Source: Xanthomonas floridensis (GTDB lineage: Bacteria > Pseudomonadota > Gammaproteobacteria > Xanthomonadales > Xanthomonadaceae). From it: DNA of 64,000 nucleotides. Below the pieces are notes generated by a model. It was not told the origin of the DNA. It did not search any database and saw only the letters and a list, made by a program, of their open reading frames with translations. This document shows, piece after piece, positions 25,141-56,634 of the stretch. Numbering within the stretch: the first letter of the stretch is position 1; each line of letters starts with the position of its first letter. A program made the position numbers and the translations under genes. The stretch spans positions 1-64,000 of the forward strand of contig NZ_LXNG01000015.1 of the NCBI RefSeq assembly GCF_001642575.1, given 5' to 3'.

Positions 25141-27540
25141 TCACGCCGACTCCAACACCCAACACCCGAACGCCGGCCCGGCCGAGTATCCGGTCTCCGG
25201 TTCGATGCGGATCTGCAAGGAGGTACGGCCTGCCAGTGCTGCAGGCAAGGCGTAATCCACATCGACGAAGTCCAGGCCGCGGTTGCCGTCCAGGCGTTCG
25301 TTGGCGATGAGTTCGCCGTCGGCGAGGATGCGGAAGCGGCGGCGGGTTTCGTCGCCCCAGTAACGCAGGCGCAGGATGCGGGCCTGTGCGGTGTTGCGCA
25401 GGGTGAAGGCGATGAAACCGCCGGTGCGGGCGTCGCGGCCGGCGCGGCGGCGGTAGCTCAGTGCGTAGGAGCTGTCGCTGGTGAGGGCGTGCGCCTTCTC
25501 CGATGCTTCCTCGCCCAGCGCGATGCGATCCAGTGCGCGCGCGTCGAGTGCGCGTTGCGCCGCGTCCGCTGCCGCCTGCCCGGCCTGGCGTTGTTGCCAG
25601 GCGGAGGCGTCGCGGTGCTCCAGGTAGACGGCGCTGCGGCGATCGAACTGGGCGTAGAACGGGGAAAACTGCCATTGCCGGGCGCCATCTGAATCGGCAT
25701 CGGCATCGGCATAGGCGTAGTGGCCGTGGGCCGGGAGCGGCCGCAGGCGTTGCAGGACGTCATCGCCGCCGATCAGCACCGGGGTCTTGTTGCTCCACGG
25801 CGTTGCGGCGTCGCCGAGGTCGGCTGCCAACACCAGCGGGCCGCGCATGATCGCGACCCATGCCGGATCGTCGGGCGTGGGTTCCAGCCGCAACGGCATC
25901 TCCAGCTGCAGCGACACGGTGTCGCCAGCGTTCCACAGCCGTTCGATGTGCAGGTAGCCCTCGACCGGCTGCGTTGCTTGCAGCTGCCCGTTGACCTGCA
26001 GCGTGTGCGCGCCGGCCCAGCCGGGCACGCGCAAGGCGAGCATGCGCGTTTCCGCAGGCGCGGCGTCGATGCGCAGCGTCACCTGGCCTTGTTCGGGAAG
26101 CGCGCTACGCAAGCTCAGTGCGAAACCCGCTGCATCGCGCACGCTGGAGGGCACATACAGATTGACGTAAACGCCCTGCCCGTCTTCCCAGTAGATCGAG
26201 TCGCCGAACTGCGCGTGCGCCTCCATGCCGCTGCCGACGCAGCACCAGAAATCGTCGAACGGTGTGGACCAGCCGCGTGCTTCGCCGGCCAACAGCGGTG
26301 TCATGTAGGTGAACATGCCGGTGCGCGGATGTTGCTGCGCCATCACGTGGTTGAGCAGCGTGCGCTCGTAATAGTCGAAATACGCCGCCTGCGGCCCCCA
26401 TTGATACAGATGCCGGGTGAGCTTGAGCATGTTGTAGCTGGCGCAGTGCTCGCAGGTCTGCTCGGTGAGAAACTTCGAAATGCTGTCCGGCTGCTGGAAG
26501 TACTCGCGGTCGCCGTTGCCACCGATCACATAAGTGTGATGGTCGGTGACCGTGTGCCAGAAGAAGCGCGCTGCCGCGCCGGAAGCTGCATCGCCGGTGA
26601 CCTCGTACTCGCGCGCCAGGCCGATCAGCTTGGGAATATTGGTATTGGAATGCTGGTGCACCAGTTCGTCGCGCTGGGCGATCAACGGGTCGAGCACGGC
26701 GTGATGATGCAGGCGCTGCGCCAGTGCCAACCACTGCGCATCGCCGGTTTGCACATGCAACTCGACGAACGATTCGTTGAGGCCACCGAATTCGCAAGAC
26801 AACACTTTCTGCAGCTGCGCATCGTCCAACGCTGCGAAGATGCCTTGCAGGTAACCGGCCAGCCCCACCGCCACCTGCAGCGCCTGTGCATTGCCGCAAT
26901 GCGCATGCACATCGAGCAGGCCGGCGAACAGCTTGTGCCAGGTGTACAGGGGCGCCCAACTGCCATTGAGATAAAACGGTGCAGGGTCGATCTTGCCGCG
27001 CTTGAGCTCATCGAAGACCGCGCGACCGCTTTCGATCTGCCCCGCCGCGTTCTTGCGGGTGAAGCCGGCCACATAGCCATCGCCTACATGCGCCTGGCAA
27101 CGCGCCAGTTCGCTCACCAGATACGCGCTACGCGTGGCGCATTGCGCATCGCCGGTTTGCGCATGCATCAAGGCCAACGCACTGAGATAGTGCCCCAGCG
27201 TATGCCCGGCGATGGTGTCCGCTTCCCAGCCGCCATAGGCGGGCGCCTTCGGATCCAGACCGGCATACAACACGAAGTTGTGCAGCAACCGGTCTGGCTC
27301 CAGCCGCATCAGGTACCGGCGGTTGACCTGCAGTGCGTCCAGAAACAAGGAGGGAGTCAACCGCACATGGTTCAGCGGCACCGCACGCATGCGGCCAGGT
27401 TGGGCGGCGGCAGCATCGGCGGGAAAGCGCAGGAAGCCGGCGGCAACCGCAAGGCTGCTCCAGGCCAGAAACCGGCGCCGCGACAGGCTGCCAACCGGCA
27501 GGCGGGCATCATCGAACTTGCATGCGTCGGTCATTGGCAA
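25141..27540 (-). CDS. GH127 beta-L-arabinofuranosidase, Tat-exported
   Basis: A 799-residue glycosidase of the former DUF1680 family. GH127 enzymes such as HypBA1 release beta-L-arabinofuranose from the arabino-oligosaccharides linked to hydroxyproline in extensin. The N-terminus carries a twin-arginine signal (SRRRFLAW, residues 20-27). An (alpha/alpha)6 barrel follows (about 50-480) with the zinc-thiolate site expected of the family: Glu364 and Cys366 in CEHCASYN, and Cys433-Cys434 in WCCVGSGME, Cys433 being the likely nucleophile. C-terminal beta-sandwich domains follow. Start could also be the ATG two codons on (27534). It is last in the hydroxyproline-associated cluster, 406 nt after the TonB-dependent receptor. 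Confidence 0.92.
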   Translation of the reverse strand: MPMTDACKFDDARLPVGSLSRRRFLAWSSLAVAAGFLRFPADAAAAQPGRMRAVPLNHVRLTPSLFLDALQVNRRYLMRLEPDRLLHNFVLYAGLDPKAPAYGGWEADTIAGHTLGHYLSALALMHAQTGDAQCATRSAYLVSELARCQAHVGDGYVAGFTRKNAAGQIESGRAVFDELKRGKIDPAPFYLNGSWAPLYTWHKLFAGLLDVHAHCGNAQALQVAVGLAGYLQGIFAALDDAQLQKVLSCEFGGLNESFVELHVQTGDAQWLALAQRLHHHAVLDPLIAQRDELVHQHSNTNIPKLIGLAREYEVTGDAASGAAARFFWHTVTDHHTYVIGGNGDREYFQQPDSISKFLTEQTCEHCASYNMLKLTRHLYQWGPQAAYFDYYERTLLNHVMAQQHPRTGMFTYMTPLLAGEARGWSTPFDDFWCCVGSGMEAHAQFGDSIYWEDGQGVYVNLYVPSSVRDAAGFALSLRSALPEQGQVTLRIDAAPAETRMLALRVPGWAGAHTLQVNGQLQATQPVEGYLHIERLWNAGDTVSLQLEMPLRLEPTPDDPAWVAIMRGPLVLAADLGDAATPWSNKTPVLIGGDDVLQRLRPLPAHGHYAYADADADSDGARQWQFSPFYAQFDRRSAVYLEHRDASAWQQRQAGQAAADAAQRALDARALDRIALGEEASEKAHALTSDSSYALSYRRRAGRDARTGGFIAFTLRNTAQARILRLRYWGDETRRRFRILADGELIANERLDGNRGLDFVDVDYALPAALAGRTSLQIRIEPETGYSAGPAFGCWVLESA

Positions 27541-27946
27541 GGCTCGCAGTCGCTGAGAAGACAGGACACACCCACATCATGCAAGCAGGCACGGAAGACG
27601 CGGAACTGCACTGTGCCCGCATCGCGATTCCCTGCGAAACCGGCATACCCAGACTCCTTGCCTCTCCGATGCCGCCACTCCGCCACGCGTGTCGCTCGCA
27701 CGGTGGTCGCTTCATGCATGTCTGCACATCTCATGGGCAACCAATAAGACTGTTTCGGGACCATCGAGTGTGCCAGTTGACGCCTGGAATCAGAAAACAC
27801 GCTTCGCGCGCCCCGACTCCTGTGCCCCACCCGTATCCACCTGGCGGCAGCTCGTGACGACTTGTCAGCCGCACTGCGCACCAGCACGCCAGGCGAACGC
27901 GTACTAACGCCTGGCCCAAGCGCACCGGCATGCCTGCACGCGCACC
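27541..27946. other. 406-nt spacer between TonB receptor and GH127 gene
   Basis: No gene recognised. A hairpin with perfect 8-bp arms (GCCAGGCG/CGCCTGGC, 27888-27915) lies 32 nt past the receptor stop and may reduce read-through, implying that GH127 has its own promoter here. The small ORFs in this gap are overlapping frames with no similarity I can name. Confidence 0.5.
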
Positions 27947-30838
27947 TCAGAACTTCACCGTGGCGCGTGCCCAGTAGAATCGGCCCAGCAGATCGTAAGT
28001 GGCGACGTCGGTGTTGGCATTGCCCACATTGTTGGAGTAATACAGCGGCGGCTGCTTGTTGGCGACATTGTCCACACCTACCTCGAAGCGCGTATGCCAG
28101 GGCTGCACCTCGTAGCCCAGCTGCAGATTGTTGTAGACATATGCGCCGATCTTGCGCACCACGCCGGGAATACCCGCGTCGGCGGACAGGCTCTGGTCCA
28201 GATCGGCATTGCCGATGTCGGTCTTGCCGACGTAGCGAATACGCCAGGTGGCGCTCCAGTCGTCCAACGCCCAGCTCACCGTCCCCAGCGCGCGCCAGCG
28301 CGGGAAATTGCCATAGGCCTGGGTATAGCGACCCACGTTGTGGATAGTGACCGAGCTGGGGTCGGTGGTGTCGGGCAGCACGTCGTAGCGGGTGAGGTAG
28401 GTACCGTTGAGGCTGGCATTGACCCGGCCCCAGGCGGTCTCCGGCAGGCGATAGGTCAGATTGAAATCGATGCCCTTGGCCCACAGCTTGCCCAGGTTGA
28501 CGGTGGGCTCGGCGATGTAATTGATGGTGCCGTTACCATTGCGATGGATCAACGCGCAGAACGCGCTTGCCGAATTGGCGTAGCACTGGTTGAGCACGGT
28601 CTGCGCGGACACGGTGGTGATGGTGTCCTCCAGATCGATGCGCCACCAGTCGGCGCTGAGCGACAGGCCGTCGATCCACTGCGGGTCGTACACCAGGCCC
28701 ACGTCGTACGACTTGCCGGTCTCCGGCTTGAGTTGGTAACCGGCCACCGCGGCGCCGGACACCTTGCCCGACACCTGCCCGTCCGATTGCTGGTAGCTGC
28801 CGTTGGTAGGCACATTGGCGCAGGCCACGCTGTTGCCGCCGGTGTAGCCGTTGCACGGGTCGTTGACGGTGGCAGCATCGCCGGCAACACCGGCATACAA
28901 CTCGTTGATGTTCGGCGCGCGAAACACCTGCGAGACGGTGCCACGCACCAGCAGGTTCTCGATCGGGCGATATTCCAGCGACAGTTTGCTATTGGTCTTG
29001 CTACCGACGGAGCTGTAGTCGGAATAGCGGGTACCCACCGTGACGTTCAACGCGTTGATCCCCGGCAAGTCCTTGAGCAGCGGGAACAGGGCCTCCGCAT
29101 AGGCTTCCCTCACATCAAAACTGCCGCTGAGGGTGGACGAGCAGAATTCGATCACCCCGCACAGGCCGTTCTCATCGCCCGTCCACAGCGCGTCCGATGC
29201 GGTGGTGGAGCGTTCCTTACGGTAGGAGATACCGGCGGCAAGGCTGGCTTCACCGGCAGGCAATTCGAACAGTGAGCCGTTGGCATTGGCCTCGAACTGC
29301 TTGACGGTATAGACGCTGGTCACGATCGGGTTGACCACCATGCCCTGCAGCGTATCCAGGTTGGCGCTGTCATTGAGGTTGAAGAAGTTCAACGGCGTGC
29401 AGCCGGCGGTCGCCGCGCCCGCGGCCCCGCACTTCACCACACCATCGCTGTCCAGGAACGACGGGCCGATCGCCTGATTGAACGTTGCGTAGTCGAGAAA
29501 CCCGTTGTTGATGGACTTCTGCTTGACCTTGCCGTAGTTGAAGGTGGCGTCCCACTGCCAGGAGCTGTCGCCGAAGCGGCCACGCAGACCGGGGCTGATC
29601 TGGAAGTTGTAGGTGTTGTATTGATAACTGCGATTGCCCAGCACGGTGGCGCGCGTGTTCAAGTCGTTGTAGGACGTGCCAGTGGTGCGATCGGTGCCGA
29701 AGTTGACCCCGAACGGGTTGTAGTAACTCTGCGACGACACCAGGATGTTGTCGCCGTTGGAGAAGATCGGGATCGGCGCGATGATCGATGCCGACTCGGT
29801 TTTACTGAACCAGGTGTTGACGTACCCCTCAACGCTGTCGCTGAAGCGAAATGTCCCCAGCAGGAAGGCATTGGTGCGTTTCTGCGGGGTCTGCAGCAGA
29901 TTGAAGGGCTGGTAGTTATACGAATCTGCGCTGGCGTTGTAACAATGGAAATCGCCCGGGCCGGCACGCCCGCTGACGCCACTGTTGAGCGTGACGCGGC
30001 TGCAGCCATTGGTCTGGGCGAGTTGCGCTGATTGATCGGAACCGTCGTTGAAATTGACCGTGCCGGTAGGCGTGGCGGAAGAGCCCTGCTTGACCGGCTG
30101 ACCATCCATCAAGGCCAGCGCATCCCGGGAATATGCACGTGCGCCTGCCGATACCGGGTCGATGCTGTGATACGACAGCCCGCCGATCAGGCTGCCGCGC
30201 TCCCAGGTCTTGCCGGTGGTGAGCGCGAAGTTTCGACGGTTGCCATCGCGCTCGCTGCTGGTGCCGAAGTCGCTGCTGAACTGCACGCCGTCGAAGTGCG
30301 TGCGCAAAATAAAGTTGACCACGCCGCCGATGGCGTCGGAGCCATACACCGCAGATGCGCCATCGCTGAGCACTTCGATGCGCTCGATCATGCTGGATGG
30401 AATCGCGTTGACATCGTTGTAGGCCAGGCGGATGCCGTTGACCAGCACCAGCGTGCGCTTGTCACCCAGGCCGCGCAGCGAGACCGCCGATGCGCCGGTA
30501 CCGCCACCGTTATTGGTGTACGGGTTGGTGGCATTGCCGGCGATCGATGGCAATTCCTGCAAGAGATCGCCCACCGTGGCCTTGCCGGTGGCGGCGATCT
30601 GTTCCTGGCTTACCGTGACCACCGGGTTGGCGGTTTCAGTATCCACACGACGCAGGCGCGAGCCGGTGACCACCACGCTGTCCAGCGTTTGGGTTGCATC
30701 GCCGGCTGCCTGTTGTGCCTGCGCCGGTGCCGCCGCACCTGCAAACAGCGCCACCGACAAAGCGCTGCTAAGCACGTGCTGGATCGGGCGGGTGGCGGCA
30801 GCGCGGTTGGGAGAATGAGGCAACAACGACATCGGCAT
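27947..30838 (-). CDS. TonB-dependent outer-membrane receptor (hydrolase-linked)
   Basis: A 963-residue receptor. A signal peptide (about residues 15-43, ending AAPAQAQQ) is followed by a TonB-box-like stretch (LDSVVVTGSRL), a plug domain (about 65-190, with SIAGNATNP, VSLRGLGDKRTLVLVNGIR, GSDAIGGVVNFILR) and a long barrel ending in FYWARATVKF. I start at 30838 because AGGAGCT sits just upstream and the frame before it has no signal-like sequence. Plug motifs are of the large-substrate type common in carbohydrate or peptide uptake. Flanked by GH127 and an S9 peptidase, it may import glycopeptides or arabino-oligosaccharides; the ligand is inferred. Confidence 0.93.
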   Translation of the reverse strand: MPMSLLPHSPNRAAATRPIQHVLSSALSVALFAGAAAPAQAQQAAGDATQTLDSVVVTGSRLRRVDTETANPVVTVSQEQIAATGKATVGDLLQELPSIAGNATNPYTNNGGGTGASAVSLRGLGDKRTLVLVNGIRLAYNDVNAIPSSMIERIEVLSDGASAVYGSDAIGGVVNFILRTHFDGVQFSSDFGTSSERDGNRRNFALTTGKTWERGSLIGGLSYHSIDPVSAGARAYSRDALALMDGQPVKQGSSATPTGTVNFNDGSDQSAQLAQTNGCSRVTLNSGVSGRAGPGDFHCYNASADSYNYQPFNLLQTPQKRTNAFLLGTFRFSDSVEGYVNTWFSKTESASIIAPIPIFSNGDNILVSSQSYYNPFGVNFGTDRTTGTSYNDLNTRATVLGNRSYQYNTYNFQISPGLRGRFGDSSWQWDATFNYGKVKQKSINNGFLDYATFNQAIGPSFLDSDGVVKCGAAGAATAGCTPLNFFNLNDSANLDTLQGMVVNPIVTSVYTVKQFEANANGSLFELPAGEASLAAGISYRKERSTTASDALWTGDENGLCGVIEFCSSTLSGSFDVREAYAEALFPLLKDLPGINALNVTVGTRYSDYSSVGSKTNSKLSLEYRPIENLLVRGTVSQVFRAPNINELYAGVAGDAATVNDPCNGYTGGNSVACANVPTNGSYQQSDGQVSGKVSGAAVAGYQLKPETGKSYDVGLVYDPQWIDGLSLSADWWRIDLEDTITTVSAQTVLNQCYANSASAFCALIHRNGNGTINYIAEPTVNLGKLWAKGIDFNLTYRLPETAWGRVNASLNGTYLTRYDVLPDTTDPSSVTIHNVGRYTQAYGNFPRWRALGTVSWALDDWSATWRIRYVGKTDIGNADLDQSLSADAGIPGVVRKIGAYVYNNLQLGYEVQPWHTRFEVGVDNVANKQPPLYYSNNVGNANTDVATYDLLGRFYWARATVKF

Positions 30839-31341
30839 GCGGAGCTCCTGGGAGAACGTGGGCAAACGATCGGCAACACAGGTCCGTGCCGGCATGCGCC
30901 AGCGCAGGTCAGGACAGGGAGCAGCACACCGCCGCACACCCAGTGCGACGCGCGTGCTGCGGGCACGCTCGACACCTGCCAGGCGCACGCCTGTTCTCGG
31001 CTGCGCGCAATGCGCGGTGTCGGATGGATGTCGGTACGCAGCGGTGTCGCCCAATGCGATCCGCTTTCATCAGCTGGTCACAATGTGCCTGTGCGCACGC
31101 GCGGCGTCTTGTCGCATTTGGCGACAGCGCATGCGGAAAACAGCATGGTTGGCTCGCGCATGCGCGAGCACTGCAGCGCTGGTGCGGTTGGGCCTGATCC
31201 CTCCACCGTCATCCGCGTAGCCTCGCCCCCGTGGCCATCGGCATGCACGGTGATTACAGCTGCATGGCTGGCCCGACGCGTCTGCGCGATGGCGACAGCC
31301 AGCCTGGCCGGATCACGCCAATCGCGGCGCCGCGCCGCGCA
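30839..31341. promoter_or_regulatory. 503-nt upstream region of TonB receptor with palindrome
   Basis: No gene seen. It separates the S9 peptidase stop from the receptor start and should hold the receptor promoter. A small palindrome, TGTCGC-N5-GCGACA (31110-31126), lies about 270 nt upstream of the receptor start and could be an operator. I cannot assign -35/-10 boxes with confidence. Confidence 0.35.
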
Positions 31342-36227: not shown

Positions 36228-36625
36228 CGTTGCGCCCTTGAGTGATCCACCCTGCATGCTGCGCGTTGGCGCCGCCCCCGTCTTGTGAGGCCTGTCTGAC
36301 GCGCGTGCGGAAATGGGCATACAGCACCATCGACCGCCGCAGCCGCGCCCTGACCAGATGGATCGGCAGTGGCGCCGTCTCAAGATCTGCGGCGGGCCTG
36401 CCCCAGGCTGCGCCCCTGCGCTCGACGGCGCCTGGCGACATGCGTGGAGGACGCAAACAACTTCGCGTTGCGATCGATCCGGTGCCGCGACAGCGCACTG
36501 CATCCACGCAGCATGACGTTCAATGAGCCCCCGACGCACGAGGTGACGATGCTGTCACCACGACGTTTCCCCGCAGCCGCGCAGTCGCACCGCGCGTCAC
36601 CGTCCTTACAGAGAGAGATCGCCGC
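36228..36625. promoter_or_regulatory. 398-nt divergent promoter region
   Basis: Lies between the minus-strand Tat protein gene and the plus-strand S53 peptidase gene, and should hold both promoters. A perfect palindrome GGTGAC-N6-GTCACC (36542-36559) is 67 nt upstream of the S53 start and is an operator candidate. Its half-sites are spaced too far apart for a CRP/Clp site. No ORF of note. Confidence 0.4.
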
Positions 36626-44320: not shown

Positions 44321-44384
44321 ACGTCGCCCCGAAGAGTGGAAAGCGCGGTGACGGCGGCAACGCCGCACCCGTGGTGGTGGTGCA

Positions 44385-48142: not shown

Positions 48143-49342
48143 TTACGCAAACGGTTGATCGATCGCTGGCGACGGTAGCGTGAACCACTGCGCGCCGGCG
48201 TCGGTGACATGGAAGTGGTCTTCCAGGCGCACGCCGAACTGCCCGGGCACCACGATCATCGGTTCGTTGCTGGCGCACATGCCTGGCCGCAGCGGCAGCG
48301 CGTTGCCGCGCACCAGATATGGCGCCTCATGAATCGCCAGCCCGCAGCCATGGCCGGTGCGATGCGGCAAGCCGGGCAGACGGTAATCAGGGCCCAGCCC
48401 TGCCGCTTCCAGCACCGTGCGCGCGGCCTGGTCCACCGCCTCGCAGGCAACGCCCGGGCGGATTGCCGCAAACGCCGCGGCCTGCGCGGCCTGCTCCAGG
48501 TCCCAGATGCGCCGTTGCGCATCGCTGGGCGCGCCATAACTCCAGGTGCGGGTGATATCGGAGTGATAGCCCTGCACGGTGCAGCCAGTGTCGATCAGCA
48601 CCAGCTCGCCTTCGCGCAGCTGCTGCACGCCGGGAATGCCGTGCGGAAACGCAGTGGCATGACCGAACTGCACGATGCAGAAGGTCGAGCCGTTGTCTGC
48701 GCCCAGCGCGCGATGCGCCTGGTCGATGAAGCGCACCAGCTGGTCGGTGCCGATGCCTTCGTGCGCAATGCCGGCGGCCAGGCGCTGCACCAGCAAGGTC
48801 ATGTCGCAGGCCTGCTGCATCAGTGCCAGCTCGGCGGCCGACTTGCACATGCGACAGCCATCGATAATGCCGCCGGCGTCGCGGATGGCGGTGCCCAGGT
48901 GCGCGCGCAGGCCGGTGTGCACGGCAAACGCGATCCCCGGATCCAGCGCCAGCGCGTGTGCATGGCGATCGTCCATGACCTGCACGACCAGTGCATACGG
49001 ATCCTCGTGTTCTTCCCACAGGAATTTGGCCACCGGAATCTGCAGCACCGCGTCCAGCGAGCCTTCCTCGAAGGCCGGGCAGATCAGCGCCGGGTCGCCA
49101 TCGATGGTGAGCAGCATCGCCACCAGCCGTTCGCTTGCCCCCCAGGCCACCCCGGTGAAGTAACGCAGCGAGGTGCCGGCGCCGATCAACAACGCATCCA
49201 CGCCGTGCGCACGCATCAGCCCGCGCGCGCGCTCGATGCGCTGCGCATACTCATCGGCCGCGATCGGCGCGGCGCGCTGCGTCCAGGGCGCCAGTTGCGC
49301 CTGCGCCTGCTCAAGCGACAGACCGCCAATCTGCGTGCTCAT
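48143..49342 (-). CDS. M24 family metallopeptidase (Xaa-Pro dipeptidase type)
   Basis: A 399-residue cytoplasmic pita-bread peptidase. The N-terminal creatinase-like domain (about residues 1-170) is followed by the catalytic domain with all five metal ligands: both aspartates in DTGCTVQGYHSDITRT, His in HRTGHGCG, Glu in SNEPMIV and Glu in GVRLEDHF. I start at 49342 (MSTQIGGLSL), overlapping the dehydrogenase stop by 4 nt (ATGA). Prolidases split X-Pro and X-Hyp dipeptides. Its coupling to hydroxyproline genes suggests it supplies free hydroxyproline to the pathway. Confidence 0.93.
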   Translation of the reverse strand: MSTQIGGLSLEQAQAQLAPWTQRAAPIAADEYAQRIERARGLMRAHGVDALLIGAGTSLRYFTGVAWGASERLVAMLLTIDGDPALICPAFEEGSLDAVLQIPVAKFLWEEHEDPYALVVQVMDDRHAHALALDPGIAFAVHTGLRAHLGTAIRDAGGIIDGCRMCKSAAELALMQQACDMTLLVQRLAAGIAHEGIGTDQLVRFIDQAHRALGADNGSTFCIVQFGHATAFPHGIPGVQQLREGELVLIDTGCTVQGYHSDITRTWSYGAPSDAQRRIWDLEQAAQAAAFAAIRPGVACEAVDQAARTVLEAAGLGPDYRLPGLPHRTGHGCGLAIHEAPYLVRGNALPLRPGMCASNEPMIVVPGQFGVRLEDHFHVTDAGAQWFTLPSPAIDQPFA

Positions 49343-50934
49343 GCGCCCGCTCCCACGTCGGCGCTGCTCCACTGCCCGTCCACCAGGCGCGCCACGCCGC
49401 CGGGATTGCGCTGGCGCAGTTCCACCGGCAGTAGCGCATCCGGTACCGCATCAAAGCTGTGCAACGCCGCAAAGCGACGGATCGCACCGGGCATGCCGAC
49501 CGCGGTGAAGCCCGGATGCCCGGTGCTCGGGAATGGGCCGCCATGATTCTGCGCCGCGCTCACTGCCACGCCGGTCGGCATCTTGCTGTTGATCAGGCGT
49601 CCCACCCGTGCGCGCAGCACCGGCGCGATCGCCTGCCAGGCGGCATCGTCACTGCCATCGCCTGCGCGGTACAGCGTGCCGGTCAGGTTGCCTTCGAACG
49701 CGGCCGCCAGCTGCGCCATCTGCGCGGTATCGCGTGCGCGCACCAACAGGCTCACCGGCCCGAAGGCCTCGGTCTGCAGCGCCTGCGGGTTGGCCAGGAA
49801 CGCCTGCGCATCAACGCTCAGCAAGGTAGGCGCATAGCGGAAACCGTCTTCGCCACGCTGCCCGCCGGCCAGCAGCGCCGCGCCAGCCTCACGCAGTGTG
49901 GCCACGCCGCGTTGCACGCCGTCCACCCCGGAGGCCGAGAACAGCACCATCGGCAACGCGGCATCGAAATGCGCCTTGGTGGCGGCGACGAAGGCATCGC
50001 CTGCCGCGCCGTGCGGCACCACCACCACGCCGGGATTGGTGCAGAACTGGCCGCTACCCAGGGTGCACGAGGCAAAGAATTCCTGCGCCAGCGCATCGCC
50101 GCGCTCGGCCAGCGCGCCGGGCAACAGGAACACCGGGTTGACACTCGAAAGCTCGGCATAGAACGGTACGCCGGCCGCATCGGCAGCGGCCTTCAACGCC
50201 AGCCCGCCCGCGCGGCTACCGGTAAACCCGATCGCGCCCAGGCGCGCATCGCCGGCCAGCCGCACGCCGAGTGCGTTATCGAAGTGATACAGCAACTGCA
50301 CCGCCGCTGCCGGCAGGCCCGCCGCAAGCAAGGCTGTATGCGCCAGTTGCGCCATGCGCTGGCTGGTGGCCGGATGCAACGGATGCGCCTTGGCGATCAC
50401 CGGATTGCGCGCGGCAATGGCCGAGGCGAAATCGCTGCCGGCAATGGCGTTGAACGCGAACGGGAAATTGTTGGGGCCGAACACCAATACCGGCTTGCCC
50501 AGCGGCGCCAGATGCGCGCGCAGATCGGCGGCGGTGTCGATGATGGGGTTGGTCCAGCTGTAGCTGCGCACCGCCTGGGCCGCCTGGCGCAGCTGGCCGC
50601 TGGTGCGCGGCAGCTCGTTGCCACGTAGGCGGGTGGGCGCCGGCAATGCGGTTTCTGCGCGCGCGAGCGCCACCAGGGTGTCGGCGTCGGCATCCAGTGC
50701 GTCGGCGTAGCCCTCCAGAAAGGCGGCGATGCGCTCGGCCGGTGCGGCAGCCAGTGCGGCGGCCGCCGCCTGCGCGGCGCGCAGCGCGGTCTCGATGTCC
50801 TGGGCATCGCTGACCGGAAACAGCGGGCCGATCGGCTCGCCGGTGCTGGGATCGGCAGCGCGGAAGCTGCCGCTCGCCGCATGGCTGGGCCGCCATTGGC
50901 CGGCAAGCAGGACGGGTTGGAGCGTGTCGTTCAT
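49339..50934 (-). CDS. 2,5-dioxovalerate (alpha-ketoglutarate semialdehyde) dehydrogenase
   Basis: Oxidises alpha-ketoglutarate semialdehyde to alpha-ketoglutarate, the last step of hydroxyproline breakdown. The 531-residue aldehyde dehydrogenase has NFPFAFNAIAGSDFASAIAA at the cofactor site, GFTGSRAGGLAL, Glu261 (AELSSVNP) as general base and Cys298 (GQFCTNPG) as nucleophile. Length and the PVFLLPG segment match the ketoglutarate-semialdehyde subfamily. The specific call leans on operon context. It lies 192 nt after the deaminase gene and overlaps the M24 peptidase. Confidence 0.92.
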   Translation of the reverse strand: MNDTLQPVLLAGQWRPSHAASGSFRAADPSTGEPIGPLFPVSDAQDIETALRAAQAAAAALAAAPAERIAAFLEGYADALDADADTLVALARAETALPAPTRLRGNELPRTSGQLRQAAQAVRSYSWTNPIIDTAADLRAHLAPLGKPVLVFGPNNFPFAFNAIAGSDFASAIAARNPVIAKAHPLHPATSQRMAQLAHTALLAAGLPAAAVQLLYHFDNALGVRLAGDARLGAIGFTGSRAGGLALKAAADAAGVPFYAELSSVNPVFLLPGALAERGDALAQEFFASCTLGSGQFCTNPGVVVVPHGAAGDAFVAATKAHFDAALPMVLFSASGVDGVQRGVATLREAGAALLAGGQRGEDGFRYAPTLLSVDAQAFLANPQALQTEAFGPVSLLVRARDTAQMAQLAAAFEGNLTGTLYRAGDGSDDAAWQAIAPVLRARVGRLINSKMPTGVAVSAAQNHGGPFPSTGHPGFTAVGMPGAIRRFAALHSFDAVPDALLPVELRQRNPGGVARLVDGQWSSADVGAGA

Positions 50935-51126
50935 TGCGGCACCTTCGATTGCGTGGAATGGGCCACTGCGCGATGTGCCGCAGCGGCTACCCAGGGAGGC
51001 GATGCGCAGGTCGCACTGCGCGCGGCCCGCACATCGATCGACACACGCCCGCCATCGCGGCGGTGGCGTGCCGACGCGACACGCTGACAGAGTGTCGTGA
51101 CGCGCAGCGTCATGGCGCCTGCGCAA

Positions 51127-52035
51127 TCACGACAACTTGGGCGCGTGTGCGATGGCGTGGTCGATCACCTTCAGCGCCGCCTCGCGCTCGGCACCGGCCA
51201 CCACCAGCCGCGGCGCACGCACCTGCTCGCTGCCCATGCCCACCTTTGCCTGCACCAGTTTGATCAGCTGCACGAAGGTGGGCACGGTATCCAGGCGCAG
51301 CAGCGGCAGGAACCAGTTGTACAACGCCTTGGCGGCCGGGTAGCCGCCGTCGCGTGCCAGCTCGAACAGGCGTACCGATTCTTTTGGATACGCATTCACC
51401 AGGCCGGCAATCCAGCCCTTGGCCCCCATGCTCAGGCCTTCAACGATGGCATCGTCCATGCCGACCAGCAGTGCCAGCCGATCGCCCAGCAATTCCTGCA
51501 ACGCCGCGAAACGGCGCACGTCGCCGGAGGATTCCTTCACTGCCTGCAGGTTCGGGAATTCGGCGGCCAGCTCGGCGATCTGGGCCGGGCCGAAATCGGT
51601 CTTGTAGGCGACCGGGTTGTTGTACAGGATCACCGGCAGATCGGTCGCGCCGATCACCGCGCGCACATGCGCGCCCATTTCGCGCCAATCGGTGGAGTAC
51701 ACATACGGCGGCAACACCATCAATCCGCCGCAGCCGATCTCCTTGGCGGCCTTGGCCAGCGCCACCGCTTCGCCGGTGGCCAGGCTGGCGATGCCCGGCA
51801 CCACCGGCACGCGGCCGTTCAAGGCTGTGACCAGGGTGCGCAGGATCGCGAGTTTGTCGTCCACGCTCAGGGTGGCCGCTTCGCCCAACGAGCCCAGCGG
51901 CACGATCGCGGTGCAGCCGGCATCCACCAGCTGGTTGGCGTGCTTGCCGAGGAAGTCGTGGTCGATCTCACCGGAGGCGGTGAATGGGGTGGTGATGGCC
52001 GGCAACACGCCGTGCCAGAACGTAGCGATGCTCAT
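51127..52035 (-). CDS. 1-pyrroline-4-hydroxy-2-carboxylate deaminase (DHDPS superfamily)
   Basis: Converts pyrroline-4-hydroxy-2-carboxylate to alpha-ketoglutarate semialdehyde and ammonia. A 302-residue (beta/alpha)8 member of the dihydrodipicolinate synthase/NAL superfamily with GSLGEAATLS (in place of GTTGE), Tyr138 in YNNP, and Lys167 in AVKESSGD as the Schiff-base residue. The true dapA would not be expected here; location between hydroxyproline dehydrogenase subunits and a semialdehyde dehydrogenase identifies the role. The ATG overlaps the stop of the upstream flavoprotein by 4 nt. Confidence 0.93.
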   Translation of the reverse strand: MSIATFWHGVLPAITTPFTASGEIDHDFLGKHANQLVDAGCTAIVPLGSLGEAATLSVDDKLAILRTLVTALNGRVPVVPGIASLATGEAVALAKAAKEIGCGGLMVLPPYVYSTDWREMGAHVRAVIGATDLPVILYNNPVAYKTDFGPAQIAELAAEFPNLQAVKESSGDVRRFAALQELLGDRLALLVGMDDAIVEGLSMGAKGWIAGLVNAYPKESVRLFELARDGGYPAAKALYNWFLPLLRLDTVPTFVQLIKLVQAKVGMGSEQVRAPRLVVAGAEREAALKVIDHAIAHAPKLS

Positions 52036-53345
52036 GGATGATTCCCTTGCGAGTCGGAAGTGAACGAGTCGGCCAGCGCCGCGAGGCGGACCGGGAACAA
52101 CGGCGGCCGGCGGCCGGCGTCGGTGGAAAGATCGGGCGGGCAACGGCCCAGTTCGGCCAGTGCGCTGCCGCAGATGCGGCCCTGGCAGGCGCCCATGCCG
52201 CAGCGCGAGGCCAGCTTGGCGTCGCGTGCATCGTTGAAGCTGTCCAGCGCGCCCAGCGGCACGTCTTCGCAGCGGCAAACCAGGGTGTCCGGCCGCGCCA
52301 GCGCGTGGATGCGCCGGTCCAGCGCGAACTGCTGCTGCAACAGCGTGGCGAAGGCGCGCGCCGTACGCCGGCGCGGCTGTAGCCGCAGTGCATCGTCCGG
52401 CGCGCCGGCCGCCATATGTCCGGCCATCGCGCCTTCGACCAGCGCGCAATCGCGTCCGCCGATGCCGCAGGCTTCGCCGGCCGCGAACACCTGGGTGACG
52501 CTGGTGCGCAGCAAGGCATCCACCTGCACCTGCCGATGCGCGCCGCAGGGTTCCAGCTGGCAGCCCAGCAACTGCGCCAGCTCGGTGTTGGGCACCAGGC
52601 CGTAGCCCACCGCAAGCTGATCGCAGGCAATACGGGTGCGCCCGGCCGGCCCCTCCAGCTCCACTTCGCGCAGCTGCGTATCGCCGTGCGCGGCCACCAC
52701 CACGCTGCCGGTGCGATACCCGACCCGGTGCAGTTGCAGCCGCAGCGCCACTGCCTGCGCGGCTTTGCCCGGCCAGCGCCACAGCTGCGCGGCAAACGTG
52801 CGCAGTGCCGCCGCCGACGCCTGTTCGTGAATGCCCAGCACCGTGGCGCCATGCCGCTGCAAGGTCGCAGCGCTGGCCAACAGCAACGGCCCGCTACCGG
52901 CCACCAGCACGCGCTTGCCGGCCAGCGGCCAACCCTGCTTGGCCAGCGCCTGCGCGGCGCCGGCGCCGGTGACGCCGGGCAGCGTCCAGCCCGGGAACGG
53001 CAGCAATAGCTCGCGCGCGCCGGTGGCCAGCACCAGGGCGGCGTAATGCAGCTGCAGCGTGCCGTCGGGGCCATCGGCCAGCAGCCATCCCGGTTGCGCC
53101 AGCACGATCTGCGTGCGCGTCAGCAACGTGATCGCGGCGGTATCGCCCACCTGCTGCAGCAACGCACGTGCATCCTGCGGTGCACCGTGCCGTACATCGC
53201 TGCGCCACACCTGCCCACCCGCGTGCGGCTGCATGTCCACCATGCCTACGCGCACACCATGGCCGGCAGCCGCCTGCGCGGCGGCCAGCCCGGCCGGGCC
53301 GGCACCGATCACCAGCACATCGAAATGCAGGATGCGCTCAGCCAT
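52032..53345 (-). CDS. FAD/NAD(P)-binding subunit of D-hydroxyproline dehydrogenase
   Basis: A 437-residue flavoprotein resembling the alpha subunit of opine oxidases and multi-subunit D-hydroxyproline dehydrogenases. The FAD Rossmann motif VLVIGAGPAGLAAAQAA is at residues about 10-27, a second nucleotide site (RVLVAGSGPLLLASA) near 145, and the GVTGAGAA segment between them. The C-terminal BFD-like domain has Cys357, Cys359, Cys387 and Cys392 positioned for a [2Fe-2S] cluster. It overlaps the small ferredoxin subunit by 8 nt and the deaminase by 4 nt. Confidence 0.92.
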   Translation of the reverse strand: MAERILHFDVLVIGAGPAGLAAAQAAAGHGVRVGMVDMQPHAGGQVWRSDVRHGAPQDARALLQQVGDTAAITLLTRTQIVLAQPGWLLADGPDGTLQLHYAALVLATGARELLLPFPGWTLPGVTGAGAAQALAKQGWPLAGKRVLVAGSGPLLLASAATLQRHGATVLGIHEQASAAALRTFAAQLWRWPGKAAQAVALRLQLHRVGYRTGSVVVAAHGDTQLREVELEGPAGRTRIACDQLAVGYGLVPNTELAQLLGCQLEPCGAHRQVQVDALLRTSVTQVFAAGEACGIGGRDCALVEGAMAGHMAAGAPDDALRLQPRRRTARAFATLLQQQFALDRRIHALARPDTLVCRCEDVPLGALDSFNDARDAKLASRCGMGACQGRICGSALAELGRCPPDLSTDAGRRPPLFPVRLAALADSFTSDSQGNHP

Positions 53346-53583
53346 CGGTGCGTACCTGCATGCCGTCGCGTGCCTCCACCAGACAAGCGCGTTGCTGGCC
53401 GATCCCGTCGATGCGCACCCGGCATTCAAAACACACGCCCATGCCGCACAGCGGCGCACGCGGCTGCCCGCTGCTCGATTGCCGGAACTGCAGCGTGGCC
53501 TGCGCCACCGCGGCCGCCACGCTGGCACCGGCAGGCACCTCTACCGGCTGCGCATCCACCTGCAGGCGCACCGTCGCGCTCAT
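53338..53583 (-). CDS. [2Fe-2S] subunit of D-hydroxyproline dehydrogenase
   Basis: An 81-residue ferredoxin-like subunit. Cys46, Cys51, Cys54 and Cys67 (CX4CX2CX12C) form a plant-type [2Fe-2S] site. Proteins of this size serve as the gamma subunit of opine oxidase and hydroxyproline dehydrogenase complexes, carrying electrons between the two flavin subunits. It overlaps the neighbours by 4 nt (upstream oxidase) and 8 nt (downstream flavoprotein), consistent with a fixed-ratio complex. Confidence 0.92.
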   Translation of the reverse strand: MSATVRLQVDAQPVEVPAGASVAAAVAQATLQFRQSSSGQPRAPLCGMGVCFECRVRIDGIGQQRACLVEARDGMQVRTDG

Positions 53584-54818
53584 GCGGCATGCCCCTGCAC
53601 GGCGCGCGCCGGTGCATACGGCGCCGGGTCGATGGCAGGCGTGCGCCCAAGCAGGCTGTCCACGATCACCCGTGCGCTCCCCAGCGCCGTGGTGACACCC
53701 AGCCCCTCATGCCCTGCCGCCACCCAGACATCGCGCCGGCCGGGCACCGCCCCAAGATACGGCCGCCCGTCCGGCGTGGTTGGACGCAGGCCTGTCCATA
53801 CACGGATCGCCTGCAGCTCACGCAGCACCGGCAAATACGCGAATGCACGCTGCAGCATGCGCTGGAGCACCGGCATCGACAGCGCGCGATCGTGCTCGCC
53901 GAACTGCCGCGACGAACCGATGAGCAATTGCCCGGTGGGCCGCGGCTGCACATTGAAGGCCACGCTGGTGTCGTCGGCGCCATGCGCAGAATCGGCATAG
54001 CCCAGCTCCAGCAACTGATGCCGGATCAGCCCGGGGTGGCGGTCGGTGATGACCAGGTGGCCCTTGCGTGGGCGCAGGGCCAACTCCGGCAGCAGCTGCG
54101 GCAGCGCCACGCCGCTGGCCACCAGCACCGGTCCGGACAGCTGCAGCCCATCGTCCAGGCGCACCCCCTGCTCCAGCAACTGCGCCACCCGGCGGCCAGC
54201 AAACACCTGCGCCCCCGCCGTGCAGGCCAGCCCCACCAGATGCCGGGCCACGCGCGGCGGGTACACCACCGCCTCGTCGGGCACCCGCATGCCGCCGGCC
54301 AGGCCGGGCACCAGCTGCGGCTCCAGGGCATACAGCTGCTGCGCATCGATGGCGTCAGCGTGCAGTCCGGCCGCTGCCAGCCGCGCGATCTTGGCCGGTA
54401 CTGCCGCCAGTTCGCGTGCATCGCGGGCCACCCACAAGGTGCCGCAACGGCTGAATTCGGCCTCGCTCAGCGTGGCGAAACGCTCCCACAGGCGCAGCGA
54501 ATAGGCCGACAACGCCAGCTCGGCCGGGTCGTCGTCCATCGCCACCAGATGGCCCATTGCCGCTGCCGTGGAGCCGCCACCGATCGGCCCCGGCTCCACG
54601 ATCGCCACCCGCAGGCCCTCGCCCGCCGCGGCCTCGGCGCAGGCGGCTCCCACGATGCCGGCGCCGATCACGATCAGGTCGTAACTGCGCCGGGTGGAGG
54701 CGGCAGAGCTGCCGGACCCGGCGCGGGCTGCGTCCACCGCAGGCGTGCTCGCCGCCGCTGCAGGACCACGCGACGACGCGGCCACTGCAGGCGCAGGCGC
54801 GGGCCGTGAGGCGTGCAT
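53580..54818 (-). CDS. DadA-type FAD oxidase subunit of D-hydroxyproline dehydrogenase
   Basis: Oxidises cis-4-hydroxy-D-proline to pyrroline-4-hydroxy-2-carboxylate. A 412-residue glycine/D-amino-acid oxidase family protein: after an Ala/Pro/Ser-rich N-terminal stretch of about 45 residues comes the FAD motif YDLIVIGAGIVGAACAEAA, then GGGSTAAAMGHLV, and near the C-terminus WTGLRPTTPDGRPYLG and AAGHEGLGVTTALGSA. The low-complexity N-terminal stretch could mean the real start is later, though the chosen ATG overlaps the epimerase stop by one base. With the next two genes it forms a three-part dehydrogenase. Confidence 0.93.
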   Translation of the reverse strand: MHASRPAPAPAVAASSRGPAAAASTPAVDAARAGSGSSAASTRRSYDLIVIGAGIVGAACAEAAAGEGLRVAIVEPGPIGGGSTAAAMGHLVAMDDDPAELALSAYSLRLWERFATLSEAEFSRCGTLWVARDARELAAVPAKIARLAAAGLHADAIDAQQLYALEPQLVPGLAGGMRVPDEAVVYPPRVARHLVGLACTAGAQVFAGRRVAQLLEQGVRLDDGLQLSGPVLVASGVALPQLLPELALRPRKGHLVITDRHPGLIRHQLLELGYADSAHGADDTSVAFNVQPRPTGQLLIGSSRQFGEHDRALSMPVLQRMLQRAFAYLPVLRELQAIRVWTGLRPTTPDGRPYLGAVPGRRDVWVAAGHEGLGVTTALGSARVIVDSLLGRTPAIDPAPYAPARAVQGHAA

Positions 54819-55756
54819 CAGGCCACGATGCCCCAGGCGAACGGATCGGCCGGGTCGATGACCAGCTGCGAGCGCGCAGTGATATGCGCCTGCCCGCTGA
54901 TGCGCGGCGCAATGCCGCGCCCGCTCAGTCGATAACTGCCCTCGAACGCGCTGCCCAGGATGCCTTGCTGCACCCAGCGCTCGCCCTCGCCCAGCTTGCC
55001 GTCTGCGGCCAGGCAGGCCAGCTTTGCGCTGGTGCCGGTGCCGCAGGGCGAGCGGTCGTAGGCCAGCCCCGGGCACAGCACGAAATTGCGCGCCACGCCG
55101 CTGCCGTCGGGCGCGGCGCCGTTGACTTCGATGTGATCGATTTCGCCACCCGCCTCCCCCGTGATCCCGGCCGCTTCCAGCGCCAGCCGGATTGCCTCGG
55201 TGTACGCGGTGAGCGCGCGCTGATGCGCCAGGTCCAGCACGCACGGCGCCTGTTCGGTGATGAAGAACCAGTTACCGCCCCAGGCCACATCGCCGCGCAC
55301 ACGCCCGTAGCCCGGCACGTCCACCTCCACTCCGGCGGCGGCGCGATAACTCTCGACGTTGTCTACCCACACCGTGCCGTCTGCGGCCAGCTCCACCCCC
55401 ACGGTGCCAACCGGGGTTTCGATGCGGTGCTGCCCTGGCCCGATCCGCCCCAGTTCCGCCAGCGTGCGCACCACCCCGATGGTGCCGTGGCCGCACATCC
55501 CCAGATAGCCCACGTTGTTGAAGAAGATCACCCCGGTGCACGCGCTCGGGTCCCGCGGCGGCAGCAACAGCGCGCCCACCATGGTGTCCGAGCCGCGCGG
55601 TTCGCAGGCGATGGCGCTGCGCCAGCGGTCAAAGTCGCGGCCAAAGCGCTCGCGACACTGCGCCAGGTCGCCCTCGCCCAGATCGGGGAAGCCGGAGAGC
55701 ACCACCCGGGTAGGTTCGCCGGCGGTGTGGGAGTCGATGACGTCGATGGTGTGCAT
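54818..55756 (-). CDS. 4-hydroxyproline 2-epimerase
   Basis: First enzyme of the pathway: interconverts trans-4-hydroxy-L-proline and cis-4-hydroxy-D-proline without cofactor. The 312-residue protein belongs to the proline racemase superfamily. Cys88 (GMCGHGTIG) and Cys238 ([10 protein letters not shown]) are the two catalytic cysteines, the pair that separates epimerases and racemases from the dehydratase branch. The N-terminus [18 protein letters not shown] is typical. I start at 55756; an ATG 15 nt upstream adds five residues. It is first in the operon, divergent from the AraC regulator. Confidence 0.95.
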
Positions 55757-55812
55757 GGCCCATGCTCCCACCGCCGGCCCGCGAACGACTAGCGTGCAAT
55801 GCGAAGTGAAAA

Positions 55813-55826
55813 TGCGGAAATCCGCA
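55813..55826. promoter_or_regulatory. Palindrome TGCGGA-AA-TCCGCA, operator candidate
   Basis: A perfect 6-bp inverted repeat with 2-nt centre, 57 nt upstream of the epimerase start and about 92 nt upstream of the AraC-type regulator. A second, near-perfect repeat (GGCTGCAC-N5-GTACAGCC, one mismatch) lies at 55877-55897, closer to the regulator. Either could bind the divergent regulator. Confidence 0.4.
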
Positions 55827-55917
55827 CAATCGCCAAGCTGCTTCAGGGCCGCGCGTTTGCGCTAGGATCAGTAACGGGCTGCACCTTTCGTACAGCCGTC
55901 CAACCGTGACTGCCACC

Positions 55918-56634
55918 ATGACCCTGATGGACCTCAACCTTCCCGCGCTGGAAATGCAGACGCTGTTCGATGCGCTGCCGGACGTGGTGTTCTTCATCAA
56001 GGATGGCGAAGGCCGCTACACCCATTGCAATCTCACCCTGGTGCGCCGGCTCGGGCGCAAGCTGCGCAGCGAGATCATCGGGCGCTCGCCGCTGGAAGTG
56101 TTCCCGTTGCCGCTGGGCGGCAGTTACATGATGCAGGACCGTCGCGTGCTGCTCGGCGAACTGATCGACAACCAGCTGGAAGTGCACCTGTATCCCAACC
56201 GGTTGCCTGGCTGGTGCCTGACCTTCAAGCGCCCGCTGTGCGAGGCCAACGAGGTGATCGGCGTGGTCGGCATCTCGCGCGACCTGGGCCAGCCGGACAG
56301 CCGTCATTCTGCCTACGAACGGCTCAGCCAGGTGATGGACCACATGCAGGCCAACTTCGGCGACAACCTGCGCGTGCAGGCGCTGGCCGACCTGGCCGGG
56401 CTGTCGGTGGCGCAGCTGGAGCGGCACTTCCGCCGCGTGTTCCAGGTTACCCCGCAGCAGCTGCTGACCAAGCTGCGCATCGAATCGGCGATGCGGCTGC
56501 TATACGGCGACGACAGTATCGCCAGCATCGGCCAGCGCTGCGGCTTCGCCGACCAGAGCGCGTTCGCCCGCCAGTTCAAGGCCACCGTCGGCATGACGCC
56601 GCGCGATTATCGTGCCCTCAAGGGACAGTTGTAG
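55918..56634 (+). CDS. AraC-family regulator with N-terminal PAS domain
   Basis: A 238-residue regulator. Residues about 10-125 form a PAS fold (FDALPDVVFFIKDGEGRYTHCN, GRSPLEVFPLPLG, GVVGISRDL), replacing the cupin seen in most AraC proteins. Residues about 135-235 are the double helix-turn-helix AraC domain (LADLAGLSVAQLERHFRRVFQVTPQQLL and IGQRCGFADQSAFARQFKATVGMTPRDYR). A GTG at 55906 could add four residues. Divergent from the hydroxyproline epimerase, it is probably the local activator, with hydroxyproline or an intermediate as possible PAS ligand. Confidence 0.92.
   Translation: MTLMDLNLPALEMQTLFDALPDVVFFIKDGEGRYTHCNLTLVRRLGRKLRSEIIGRSPLEVFPLPLGGSYMMQDRRVLLGELIDNQLEVHLYPNRLPGWCLTFKRPLCEANEVIGVVGISRDLGQPDSRHSAYERLSQVMDHMQANFGDNLRVQALADLAGLSVAQLERHFRRVFQVTPQQLLTKLRIESAMRLLYGDDSIASIGQRCGFADQSAFARQFKATVGMTPRDYRALKGQL

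What the first reader, a model, noticed from the sequence alone, without database searches (positions are those of the whole stretch)
25141..56634. A ~31-kb locus that looks dedicated to using hydroxyproline-rich plant glycoproteins
Seen: GH127 arabinofuranosidase, TonB receptor, two S9 peptidases, an S53 peptidase, two DUF885 peptidases, an M24 prolidase-type enzyme, an amino-acid permease, a GH35/42-like enzyme, an unknown Tat protein, and a complete set for trans-4-hydroxy-L-proline breakdown under a divergent AraC regulator, nearly all on one strand. Known: GH127 HypBA1 acts on arabinose linked to hydroxyproline; the epimerase-oxidase-deaminase-semialdehyde dehydrogenase route ends in alpha-ketoglutarate. 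Inferred: together they would de-glycosylate extensin-like proteins, import and cut the peptides, and burn hydroxyproline. Linking wall-glycan removal to hydroxyproline catabolism in one locus is, to my knowledge, not a standard described unit.
Basis: partly seen in the sequence, partly recalled or inferred. Interest (0 to 1): 0.8.

Follow-up and report, generated by a model that had tools for sequence, protein, structure and literature searches.

The report
Locus for eating plant hydroxyproline glycoproteins
A stretch of Xanthomonas DNA appears to be one co-controlled kit that strips sugars off plant cell-wall proteins, cuts the protein and burns its special amino acid hydroxyproline, which would explain why these bacteria keep enzymes that release a sugar one of them reportedly cannot use.

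Summary
Four tests say the block is one unit. (1) Synteny: 27 of 27 unbroken Xanthomonas loci keep GH146, TonB receptor, Tat protein, GH35, permease, both DUF885, M24 and the hydroxyproline (Hyp) genes together. (2) Association: in the genomes sampled, one GH146 clade goes with 4-Hyp epimerase, in all 26 of 198 Xanthomonadaceae and all 21 of 249 genomes of a second, alphaproteobacterial family that carry it, there beside a distantly related epimerase. (3) Regulation: an operator-like element, TGCNNNTTTCCGCA, precedes the Hyp operon and both glycan units in most Xanthomonas loci. (4) The published X. euvesicatoria extensin enzymes (GH43, GH121, GH146; PMC6085000) lie inside this locus; the window lacks GH43 and GH121. 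Those authors asked why a bacterium unable to use arabinose keeps such enzymes; hydroxyproline as the prize is an answer. Seven literature searches in an open-access library found no paper joining the two halves. Growth, induction and binding assays remain to be done.

The parts
25141..27540 (-). GH146 beta-L-arabinofuranosidase with Tat-like signal; 84-85% identical to the X. euvesicatoria copy at the place of XeHypBA1 (XCV2724)
27947..31054 (-). TonB-dependent receptor heading the TBDT-GH146 unit (longest ORF; likely signal-peptide start near 30838)
31132..31145 (-). operator-like element TGCTGTTTTCCGCA, 78 bp before the receptor's longest ORF, about 293 bp before its likely start codon
31342..33774 (-). 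S9 peptidase a (signal peptide); 20 of 27 loci
33870..36227 (-). Tat-exported protein, probable (alpha/alpha)6 glycosidase of no listed family; 27 of 27 loci
36306..36319 (-). operator-like element TGCCCATTTCCGCA, 78 bp before the Tat protein
36626..38194 (+). S53 (pro-kumamolisin) peptidase, accessory, 12 of 27 loci
38759..40396 (-). GH35 beta-galactosidase-like with DUF5597, last gene of the Hyp operon; closest solved chain 8faa (1057 bits over 510 residues)
40396..42816 (-). S9 peptidase b (dipeptidyl peptidase IV-like), signal peptide; 26 of 27 loci
42734..44497 (-). amino-acid permease (APC family); likely start 44320
44385..46271 (-). DUF885 protein a, exported
46229..48046 (-). DUF885 protein b, lipoprotein-like signal
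48143..49372 (-). M24 Xaa-Pro dipeptidase without signal; closest solved chains 4r60/5cik (813 bits over 398 residues)
49339..51126 (-). aldehyde dehydrogenase (2-oxoglutarate semialdehyde step inferred); likely start 50934
51127..52035 (-). DHDPS-family protein (pyrroline-4-hydroxy-2-carboxylate deaminase step inferred)
52032..53345 (-). D-hydroxyproline dehydrogenase, FAD alpha subunit (role inferred)
53338..53583 (-). D-hydroxyproline dehydrogenase, 2Fe-2S gamma subunit (role inferred)
53580..54818 (-). D-hydroxyproline dehydrogenase, DAO beta subunit (role inferred)
54818..55771 (-). 4-hydroxyproline 2-epimerase; closest solved chain 4juu of X. campestris (650 bits over 313 residues)
55813..55826 (-). 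operator-like element TGCGGATTTCCGCA, 42 bp before the 4HypE ORF, 56 bp before its likely ATG
55906..56634 (+). divergent AraC-type regulator with PAS_4 domain, 95-100% identical in the 26 other whole Xanthomonas loci

Best explanation
A hydroxyproline-rich-glycoprotein utilisation locus whose payoff is the amino acid. Shown computationally: the gene content, its conservation, its association with one GH146 clade, and a shared promoter element. Inferred: (1) outside the inner membrane, GH43, GH121 and GH146 (the first two where kept), the Tat protein and GH35 strip arabinose and galactose from extensin-like or other Hyp-glycoproteins; (2) TonB receptors bring glycopeptides into the periplasm; (3) exported S9 and DUF885 enzymes trim the now bare Pro/Hyp peptides; (4) the APC permease imports Hyp or Xaa-Hyp; (5) the cytosolic M24 dipeptidase frees Hyp; (6) epimerase, three-subunit dehydrogenase, deaminase and aldehyde dehydrogenase turn it into 2-oxoglutarate; (7) the divergent PAS-AraC protein, sensing Hyp or an intermediate, switches on the Hyp operon and both glycan units through the TGCNNNTTTCCGCA element.
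For: Synteny: 27 of 27 unbroken Xanthomonas loci hold all core genes; 4HypE in 35 of 35 and GH146 in 34 of 35 genus genomes (the miss, G028, is 81% complete). Association: close GH146 (at least 53% identical) in 26 of 198 Xanthomonadaceae genomes, 4HypE in all 26 against 14 of the other 172 (Fisher 1e-22); linked within 43.2 kb in 15 of the 17 outside the genus. In family f45 (249 genomes) close GH146 (at least 57%) in 21, 4HypE in all 21 against 12 of 228, 19 of 21 within 11 kb. Specificity: 8 Xanthomonadaceae genomes with only distant GH146 (46% or less) have 4HypE in 2, unlinked; 6 f45 genomes with only GH146 of 51% or less have it in 1, on another contig. Tree: one 33-row clade (support 97) holds all 27 linked rows; none of the 29 rows outside is known to be linked. 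Eight of 8 tested epimerases from proteobacterial loci outside Xanthomonadaceae pass the cut-off of a different 4-Hyp-epimerase model; epimerases there are 34-42% identical to the window's, while M24 neighbours are 50-63%, so different Hyp pathways appear joined to related glycan/peptidase genes. Operator: 4 exact matches in the window against 0.05 expected, 0 of 100 shuffles, three of them before the heads of the three units; exact before 4HypE in 30 of 32, the Tat gene in 25 of 30 and the receptor in 27 of 30 Xanthomonas loci; 0 exact in 400 kb of control DNA from relative G011 against 3 in its 47-kb locus; outside the genus within one mismatch before 4HypE in 19 of 23 loci. Biochemistry: XeHypAA, XeHypBA2 and XeHypBA1 remove Hyp-arabinosides and lie here (PMC6085000).
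Against: No assay. GH121 is missing from the window's genome and GH43 from the window, so it may handle only short Hyp-arabinosides. Deaminase, dehydrogenase and aldehyde dehydrogenase have no substrate-specific model hit above cut-off; 4HypE itself scores just under the NCBIfam cut-offs (422 against 442, 415 against 450). Linkage failures: Lysobacter G046 and f45 genomes G688 and G782 on different contigs; a second close GH146 (62%) of G660 is 147 kb from its epimerase; Caulobacter L038 has none within 10 kb; L042 and L046 have none in shortened flanks. The regulator's binding to the element is not shown. Exact copies are missing at 2 of 32, 5 of 30 and 3 of 30 sites, and 4 of 23 loci outside the genus lack even a one-mismatch copy at 4HypE. 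One-mismatch copies are not rare: 13 in the 400-kb control, 30 of 72 away from mapped gene starts, and the pair found in L025 is reached by 11 of 100 shuffles, so those sites count by position only. The element was not seen near the alphaproteobacterial loci.
Confidence: 0.82

Rival explanations
1. Same kind of locus, but the real substrate is not extensin: arabinogalactan proteins or arabinosylated plant signal peptides (recalled examples: CLE, PSY, HypSys) are stripped and eaten.
For: GH35 is core in 27 of 27 loci and beta-galactose is linked to Hyp in arabinogalactan proteins (recalled); GH121, needed for longer extensin arabinosides, is dispensable (24 of 35 genomes have it); HrpX control of hypBA2-AA and induction in planta (PMC6085000).
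Against: The tested enzymes cut Hyp-arabinosides of extensin and solanaceous lectins (PMC6085000); no AGP-type exo-beta-1,3-galactanase was recognised among the genes annotated in the locus.
Confidence: 0.25
2. Two unrelated neighbours: a plant-glycan TonB locus that happens to lie beside a general Pro/Hyp-peptide operon.
For: The Hyp operon occurs without close GH146 in 14 of 40 4HypE genomes, and in 8 of those 14 with M24 beside the aldehyde dehydrogenase, so it has a life of its own.
Against: Association in two families with distantly related epimerases, clade specificity, and the common promoter element at all three units, also seen, with one mismatch at the Tat gene, in a Lysobacter whose halves are on different contigs.
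Confidence: 0.05
3. A virulence device that dismantles host wall defence, with nutrition secondary.
For: hypBA2-AA has a PIP box and is HrpX-dependent, and the genes are induced in infected plants (PMC6085000).
Against: Single and triple deletions stayed pathogenic (same paper). Related clusters occur in Sphingopyxis, Sphingobium, Asaia and Pseudoxanthomonas. The PIP-like match in the window is not conserved.
Confidence: 0.08

Closest known systems
XeHypAA (GH43), XeHypBA2 (GH121), XeHypBA1 (GH146) of X. euvesicatoria (PMC6085000)
   Same: Same place: GH121/GH43 4-base overlap, adjoining split prolyl oligopeptidase, GH146 downstream.
   Different: The paper covers three glycosidases, names arabinose as the product and asks what they are for; the parts I read (part 1 of 5, Discussion, passages) do not mention the Hyp operon, permease, M24 or regulator. 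The window lacks two of the three.
HypBA1-HypBA2-HypAA cluster of Bifidobacterium longum (PMC7263609, start of abstract in a search listing)
   Same: Removes beta-arabino-oligosaccharides from Hyp-rich glycoproteins.
4-hydroxyproline 2-epimerase pathway (genome-neighbourhood study, PMC4113996; PDB 4JUU)
   Same: Same epimerase family; the X. campestris structure was deposited there (passages).
   Different: A term search found no TonB, 'glycos' or collagen in its main text and one peptidase mention, for a Bacilli cluster.
Xanthomonas xyloglucan locus (PMC8245568, passages)
   Same: TonB receptors plus GH35 in a plant-polymer locus.
   Different: Carbohydrate only; its GH35 is probably the 44-47%-identical paralog found elsewhere in these genomes.
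Latescibacteria HRGP degradation model (PMC4454575, passages)
   Same: Proposes extensin use from GH127 plus peptidases in one genome.
   Different: Genome-wide inventory; its table gives arabinose as the extensin product.

Membership tests
GH146 beta-L-arabinofuranosidase | closest characterised relatives are GH146, not GH127 | tested here: met
   5opj 4.5e-127 (BT0349 by recall) and 8k7x 2.2e-52 against GH127 chain 4qjy 1.3e-19; 84-85% identical to the copy at the place of XCV2724, which PMC10850190 calls GH146
GH146 beta-L-arabinofuranosidase | hydrolysis of Araf-beta-Hyp | not testable with these tools
   shown for XeHypBA1 in PMC6085000 only
trans-4-hydroxy-L-proline catabolism (epimerase route) | genes of the epimerase, D-Hyp dehydrogenase, deaminase and semialdehyde dehydrogenase types together | tested here: met
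   by protein family only; 27 of 27 loci
trans-4-hydroxy-L-proline catabolism (epimerase route) | curated model cut-off for 4-Hyp epimerase | tested here: inconclusive
   422 against 442 and 415 against 450 bits; closest solved chain is the X. campestris 4HypE 4juu
Hyp-rich-glycoprotein arabinoside system (GH43-GH121-GH146) | all three glycosidases | tested here: not met
   GH121 absent from the window's genome and GH43 from the window; GH43 and GH121 each found in 19 of 27 whole loci of the genus
TonB-dependent carbohydrate-utilisation (CUT/PUL-like) locus | TonB receptor, exported glycosidases, inner-membrane transporter and regulator in one block | tested here: met
TonB-dependent carbohydrate-utilisation (CUT/PUL-like) locus | sugar catabolism as payoff | tested here: not met
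   none of the genes annotated in the block is a known sugar catabolic gene; it encodes amino-acid catabolism
(alpha/alpha)6 six-hairpin glycosidases (Tat protein) | fold | tested here: inconclusive

The most novel reading that the evidence does not exclude
A glycoprotein-utilisation locus that harvests the amino acid instead of the sugar. It was assembled at least twice (gamma- and alphaproteobacteria) by joining related GH146/M24/DUF885 genes to distantly related hydroxyproline pathways. In Xanthomonadaceae it is unified by a PAS-AraC regulon and includes a founding member of an unlisted glycosidase family (the Tat protein).
Probability: 0.55. Interest if true: 0.85.

Novelty: new variant of a known kind. 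Interest (0 to 1): 0.76.

Why it matters
It gives a testable answer to a question left open in print: why X. euvesicatoria, which according to PMC6085000 (Discussion) cannot use L-arabinose and does not need these enzymes for disease, keeps enzymes that strip arabinose from extensin. It also offers a candidate cause for the induction in planta of xehypBA1 without a PIP box, adds hydroxyproline as a likely nutrient from plant walls, extends the utilisation-locus idea to glycoproteins whose payoff is an amino acid, and points to an uncatalogued glycosidase and a defined regulon.

Tried and rejected
PIP-box control of the Hyp operon: a match at 55782-55805 (1.57 matches expected, 2 found) is not conserved in the 31-row alignment; rejected. 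A promoter and terminator scan was uninformative (0 promoter-like, 10 terminator-like against 8.6 in shuffles). DUF885 literature gave nothing on specificity in the listing. XPD43 (name recalled for the M24 enzyme) is not in the library. The exact element was not found near these genes in the alphaproteobacterial loci (one unplaced match in L038), so the regulon claim is limited to Xanthomonadaceae. No CAZy family is claimed for the Tat protein; absence of a close family shows nothing.

Rows I chose for the tree: 10 of the 19 linked f45 genomes, not the two with split contigs (G688, G782) nor the unlinked close second copy of G660; 7 of the 17 close Xanthomonadaceae genomes outside the genus plus L029; of the Xanthomonas genus only the window and one distant copy; of the other distant copies a part. 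Four rows were marked '?': L038 (none within 10 kb), L042 and L046 (short flanks), L029 (epimerase not reached). L034 counts as linked on a 34% match only. The 17 proteobacterial loci include five Sphingopyxis-like near-relatives (L039-L041, L043, L044), so they are not 17 independent cases.

Full report
WHAT IS THERE. The window lies in a genome whose genus-mates are Xanthomonas (G000, contig C15). The arabinofuranosidase is GH146: 5opj 4.5e-127 (BT0349 by recall) and 8k7x 2.2e-52 against 1.3e-19 for a GH127 chain. XeHypBA1 of X. euvesicatoria is likewise called GH146 in PMC10850190 (passages), and the copy at its place is 84-85% identical. The Hyp set includes an 81-aa 2Fe-2S subunit. With likely start codons, the twelve genes from 4HypE to GH35 show seven overlaps and gaps of 192, 96, 64 and 20 bases. 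Signal peptides (my reading) put GH146, the Tat protein, GH35, both S9 and both DUF885 proteins outside the cytoplasm; M24 and the Hyp enzymes show none.

IS IT ONE UNIT? SYNTENY. 4HypE occurs in 35 of 35 genus genomes, the in-locus GH35 in 35 (split into pieces in G008, G009, G018 and G021), GH146 in 34 (the miss is 81% complete). GH146 and 4HypE lie on one contig in 27 genomes, 24.6-45.0 kb apart, and on different contigs of broken assemblies in 7. In the 27 (window included) GH146, TonB receptor, Tat protein, GH35, permease, DUF885a/b, M24, aldehyde dehydrogenase, DHDPS, three dehydrogenase subunits, 4HypE and AraC are each present in 27 of 27, S9b in 26, S9a in 20, GH43 and GH121 in 19, the second TonB receptor in 18, S53 in 12 (at least 60% identity over 75% of the query).

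THE MISSING CASSETTE. Most species carry GH43, GH121 and a second TonB receptor between S9a and the Tat gene (GH121 matches HypBA2 6m5a at 8.7e-212). GH121 is in 24 of 35 genomes and absent from the window's genome. In X. euvesicatoria (G017, named by matching contig coordinates to L020) this is the published set: GH121 and GH43 overlap by 4 bases, as PMC6085000 reports for xehypBA2-AA, next to a prolyl oligopeptidase which that paper calls a frameshifted pseudogene and which is split. The two contigs of that assembly break inside the Tat gene: its N-terminus is on C92 with the Hyp genes, the rest on C11 with GH121, so published enzymes and Hyp operon are neighbours there too.

ASSOCIATION BEYOND THE GENUS. 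In 198 Xanthomonadaceae genomes close GH146 (53% or more) occurs in 26; all 26 have 4HypE, against 14 of the other 172 (Fisher 1e-22). Of the 17 outside the genus, 15 are linked, 17-43 kb apart; one assembly is too broken (G063) and one has them on different contigs (G046, Lysobacter). Eight genomes have only distant GH146 (46% or less); 2 of these have 4HypE, unlinked. In family f45 (alphaproteobacterial by inference), 249 genomes: close GH146 (57% or more) in 21, 4HypE in 21 of 21 against 12 of 228; 19 are 2-11 kb apart, 2 on other contigs; a second close copy in G660 is 147 kb away. Six f45 genomes have only GH146 of 51% or less; one has 4HypE, on another contig. By genus, 14 of 15 (f45) and 6 of 8 (Xanthomonadaceae outside the genus) have a linked member. 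These genomes are related, so the Fisher values overstate independence.

Among 17 proteobacterial loci outside Xanthomonadaceae fetched by GH146 similarity alone, 14 have an epimerase-like gene in the flanks, 11 M24, 12 DHDPS, 11 DUF885; none of 6 more distant loci (L050-L055, some with short flanks) shows any. Eight of 8 epimerases tested pass the cut-off of another 4-Hyp-epimerase model, PRK13971; the 14 are 34-42% identical to the window's, while M24 is 50-63%. So the Hyp pathway seems to have been joined, or replaced, independently. Annotated alpha loci also hold an amino-acid permease, DAO, an S10 carboxypeptidase-like protein and, in L037, a POT transporter. A GH146 tree of rows I chose places 27 linked, 4 undecided, 1 fragmented and 1 unlinked row in one 33-row clade (support 97); none of the 29 rows outside is known to be linked.

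REGULATION. The 4HypE/AraC intergenic region carries a conserved inverted repeat. The pattern TGCNNNTTTCCGCA has four exact matches in the window against 0.05 expected, 0 of 100 shuffles: 56 bp before the likely start of 4HypE, 78 bp before the Tat gene, 78 bp before the longest TonB-receptor ORF (293 bp before its likely start), and one inside GH146. It is exact before 4HypE in 30 of 32 Xanthomonas loci, the Tat gene in 25 of 30 (one of these across a contig break) and the receptor in 27 of 30. A control of 20 evenly spaced 20-kb stretches of relative G011 has no exact match, against 3 in its 47-kb locus; with one mismatch there are 13 and 3. Outside the genus, with one mismatch allowed, it stands 42-63 bp before the 4HypE frame in 19 of 23 loci, among them 12 of 14 that lack close GH146; of 72 such sites in 695.5 kb, 42 lie before a mapped gene. 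In Lysobacter M2-1, whose halves are on different contigs, an exact copy precedes 4HypE and a one-mismatch perfect palindrome precedes the Tat gene (by number alone that pair is reached in 11 of 100 shuffles). The likely history is a Hyp operon with its regulator, under which glycan genes were recruited. Binding by the AraC protein is inferred from position only.

LITERATURE. PMC6085000 (part 1 of 5, Discussion, passages) shows the three enzymes acting on Hyp-arabinosides, HrpX control of hypBA2-AA, induction of xehypBA1 in plants without a PIP box, pathogenic mutants, and the remark that X. euvesicatoria cannot use L-arabinose, followed by the question why it has the enzymes. The Hyp operon next door gives an answer, and the element before TBDT-GH146 a candidate for the unexplained induction. 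Searches for a paper joining the two halves (listings) found none in this open-access library; most subscription journals are not in it. PMC4454575 (passages) proposed HRGP use by Latescibacteria from a gene inventory.

VERDICT. The enzymes for the sugar are known; the union with Hyp catabolism under one operator appears undescribed. Function remains to be assayed.

Noticed in passing
L058 (G001) 3173-8098, and a similar place in G014: Two species carry a second, 56-57%-identical GH146 between TBDT and S9a, with a large outer-membrane-like protein; in G001 a DUF6055 protein lies there too: a further accessory cassette.
   Followed up: partly
L047 (Asaia siamensis): An acetic acid bacterium has TonB receptor, Tat protein, GH35, epimerase, DHDPS, M24, GH146, aldehyde dehydrogenase and permease matches within about 18 kb.
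   Followed up: partly
L039 8773-9789 and L037 8785-9843: Alphaproteobacterial versions include an Ldh_2-family reductase beside M24/GH146, and L039 also a P5CR-like gene; this may mean that another hydroxyproline isomer is used too (inference).
   Followed up: no
G027 (coordinates match X. phaseoli), G017, G018, G019: Decay in the accessory part: GH121 in three pieces in G027, S9a split or partial in G017-G019. G027 also shows split matches in core genes, so assembly errors are possible.
   Followed up: partly
window 10727-20814: Upstream block with purple acid phosphatase, a phytase-like frame, a TonB receptor, GH9 and gamma-glutamyltranspeptidase; GGT-like genes also flank GH146 in L039, L040, L041 and L044.
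   Followed up: no
L100 6803-8155 (G021); similar frames in G007 and G001: A DUF5694 protein lies between the Tat gene and GH35 on the opposite strand (only the G021 frame was searched).
   Followed up: no
window 55906-56634: The PAS-AraC regulator is 95-100% identical in the 26 other whole Xanthomonas loci, higher than most enzymes it would control.
   Followed up: no
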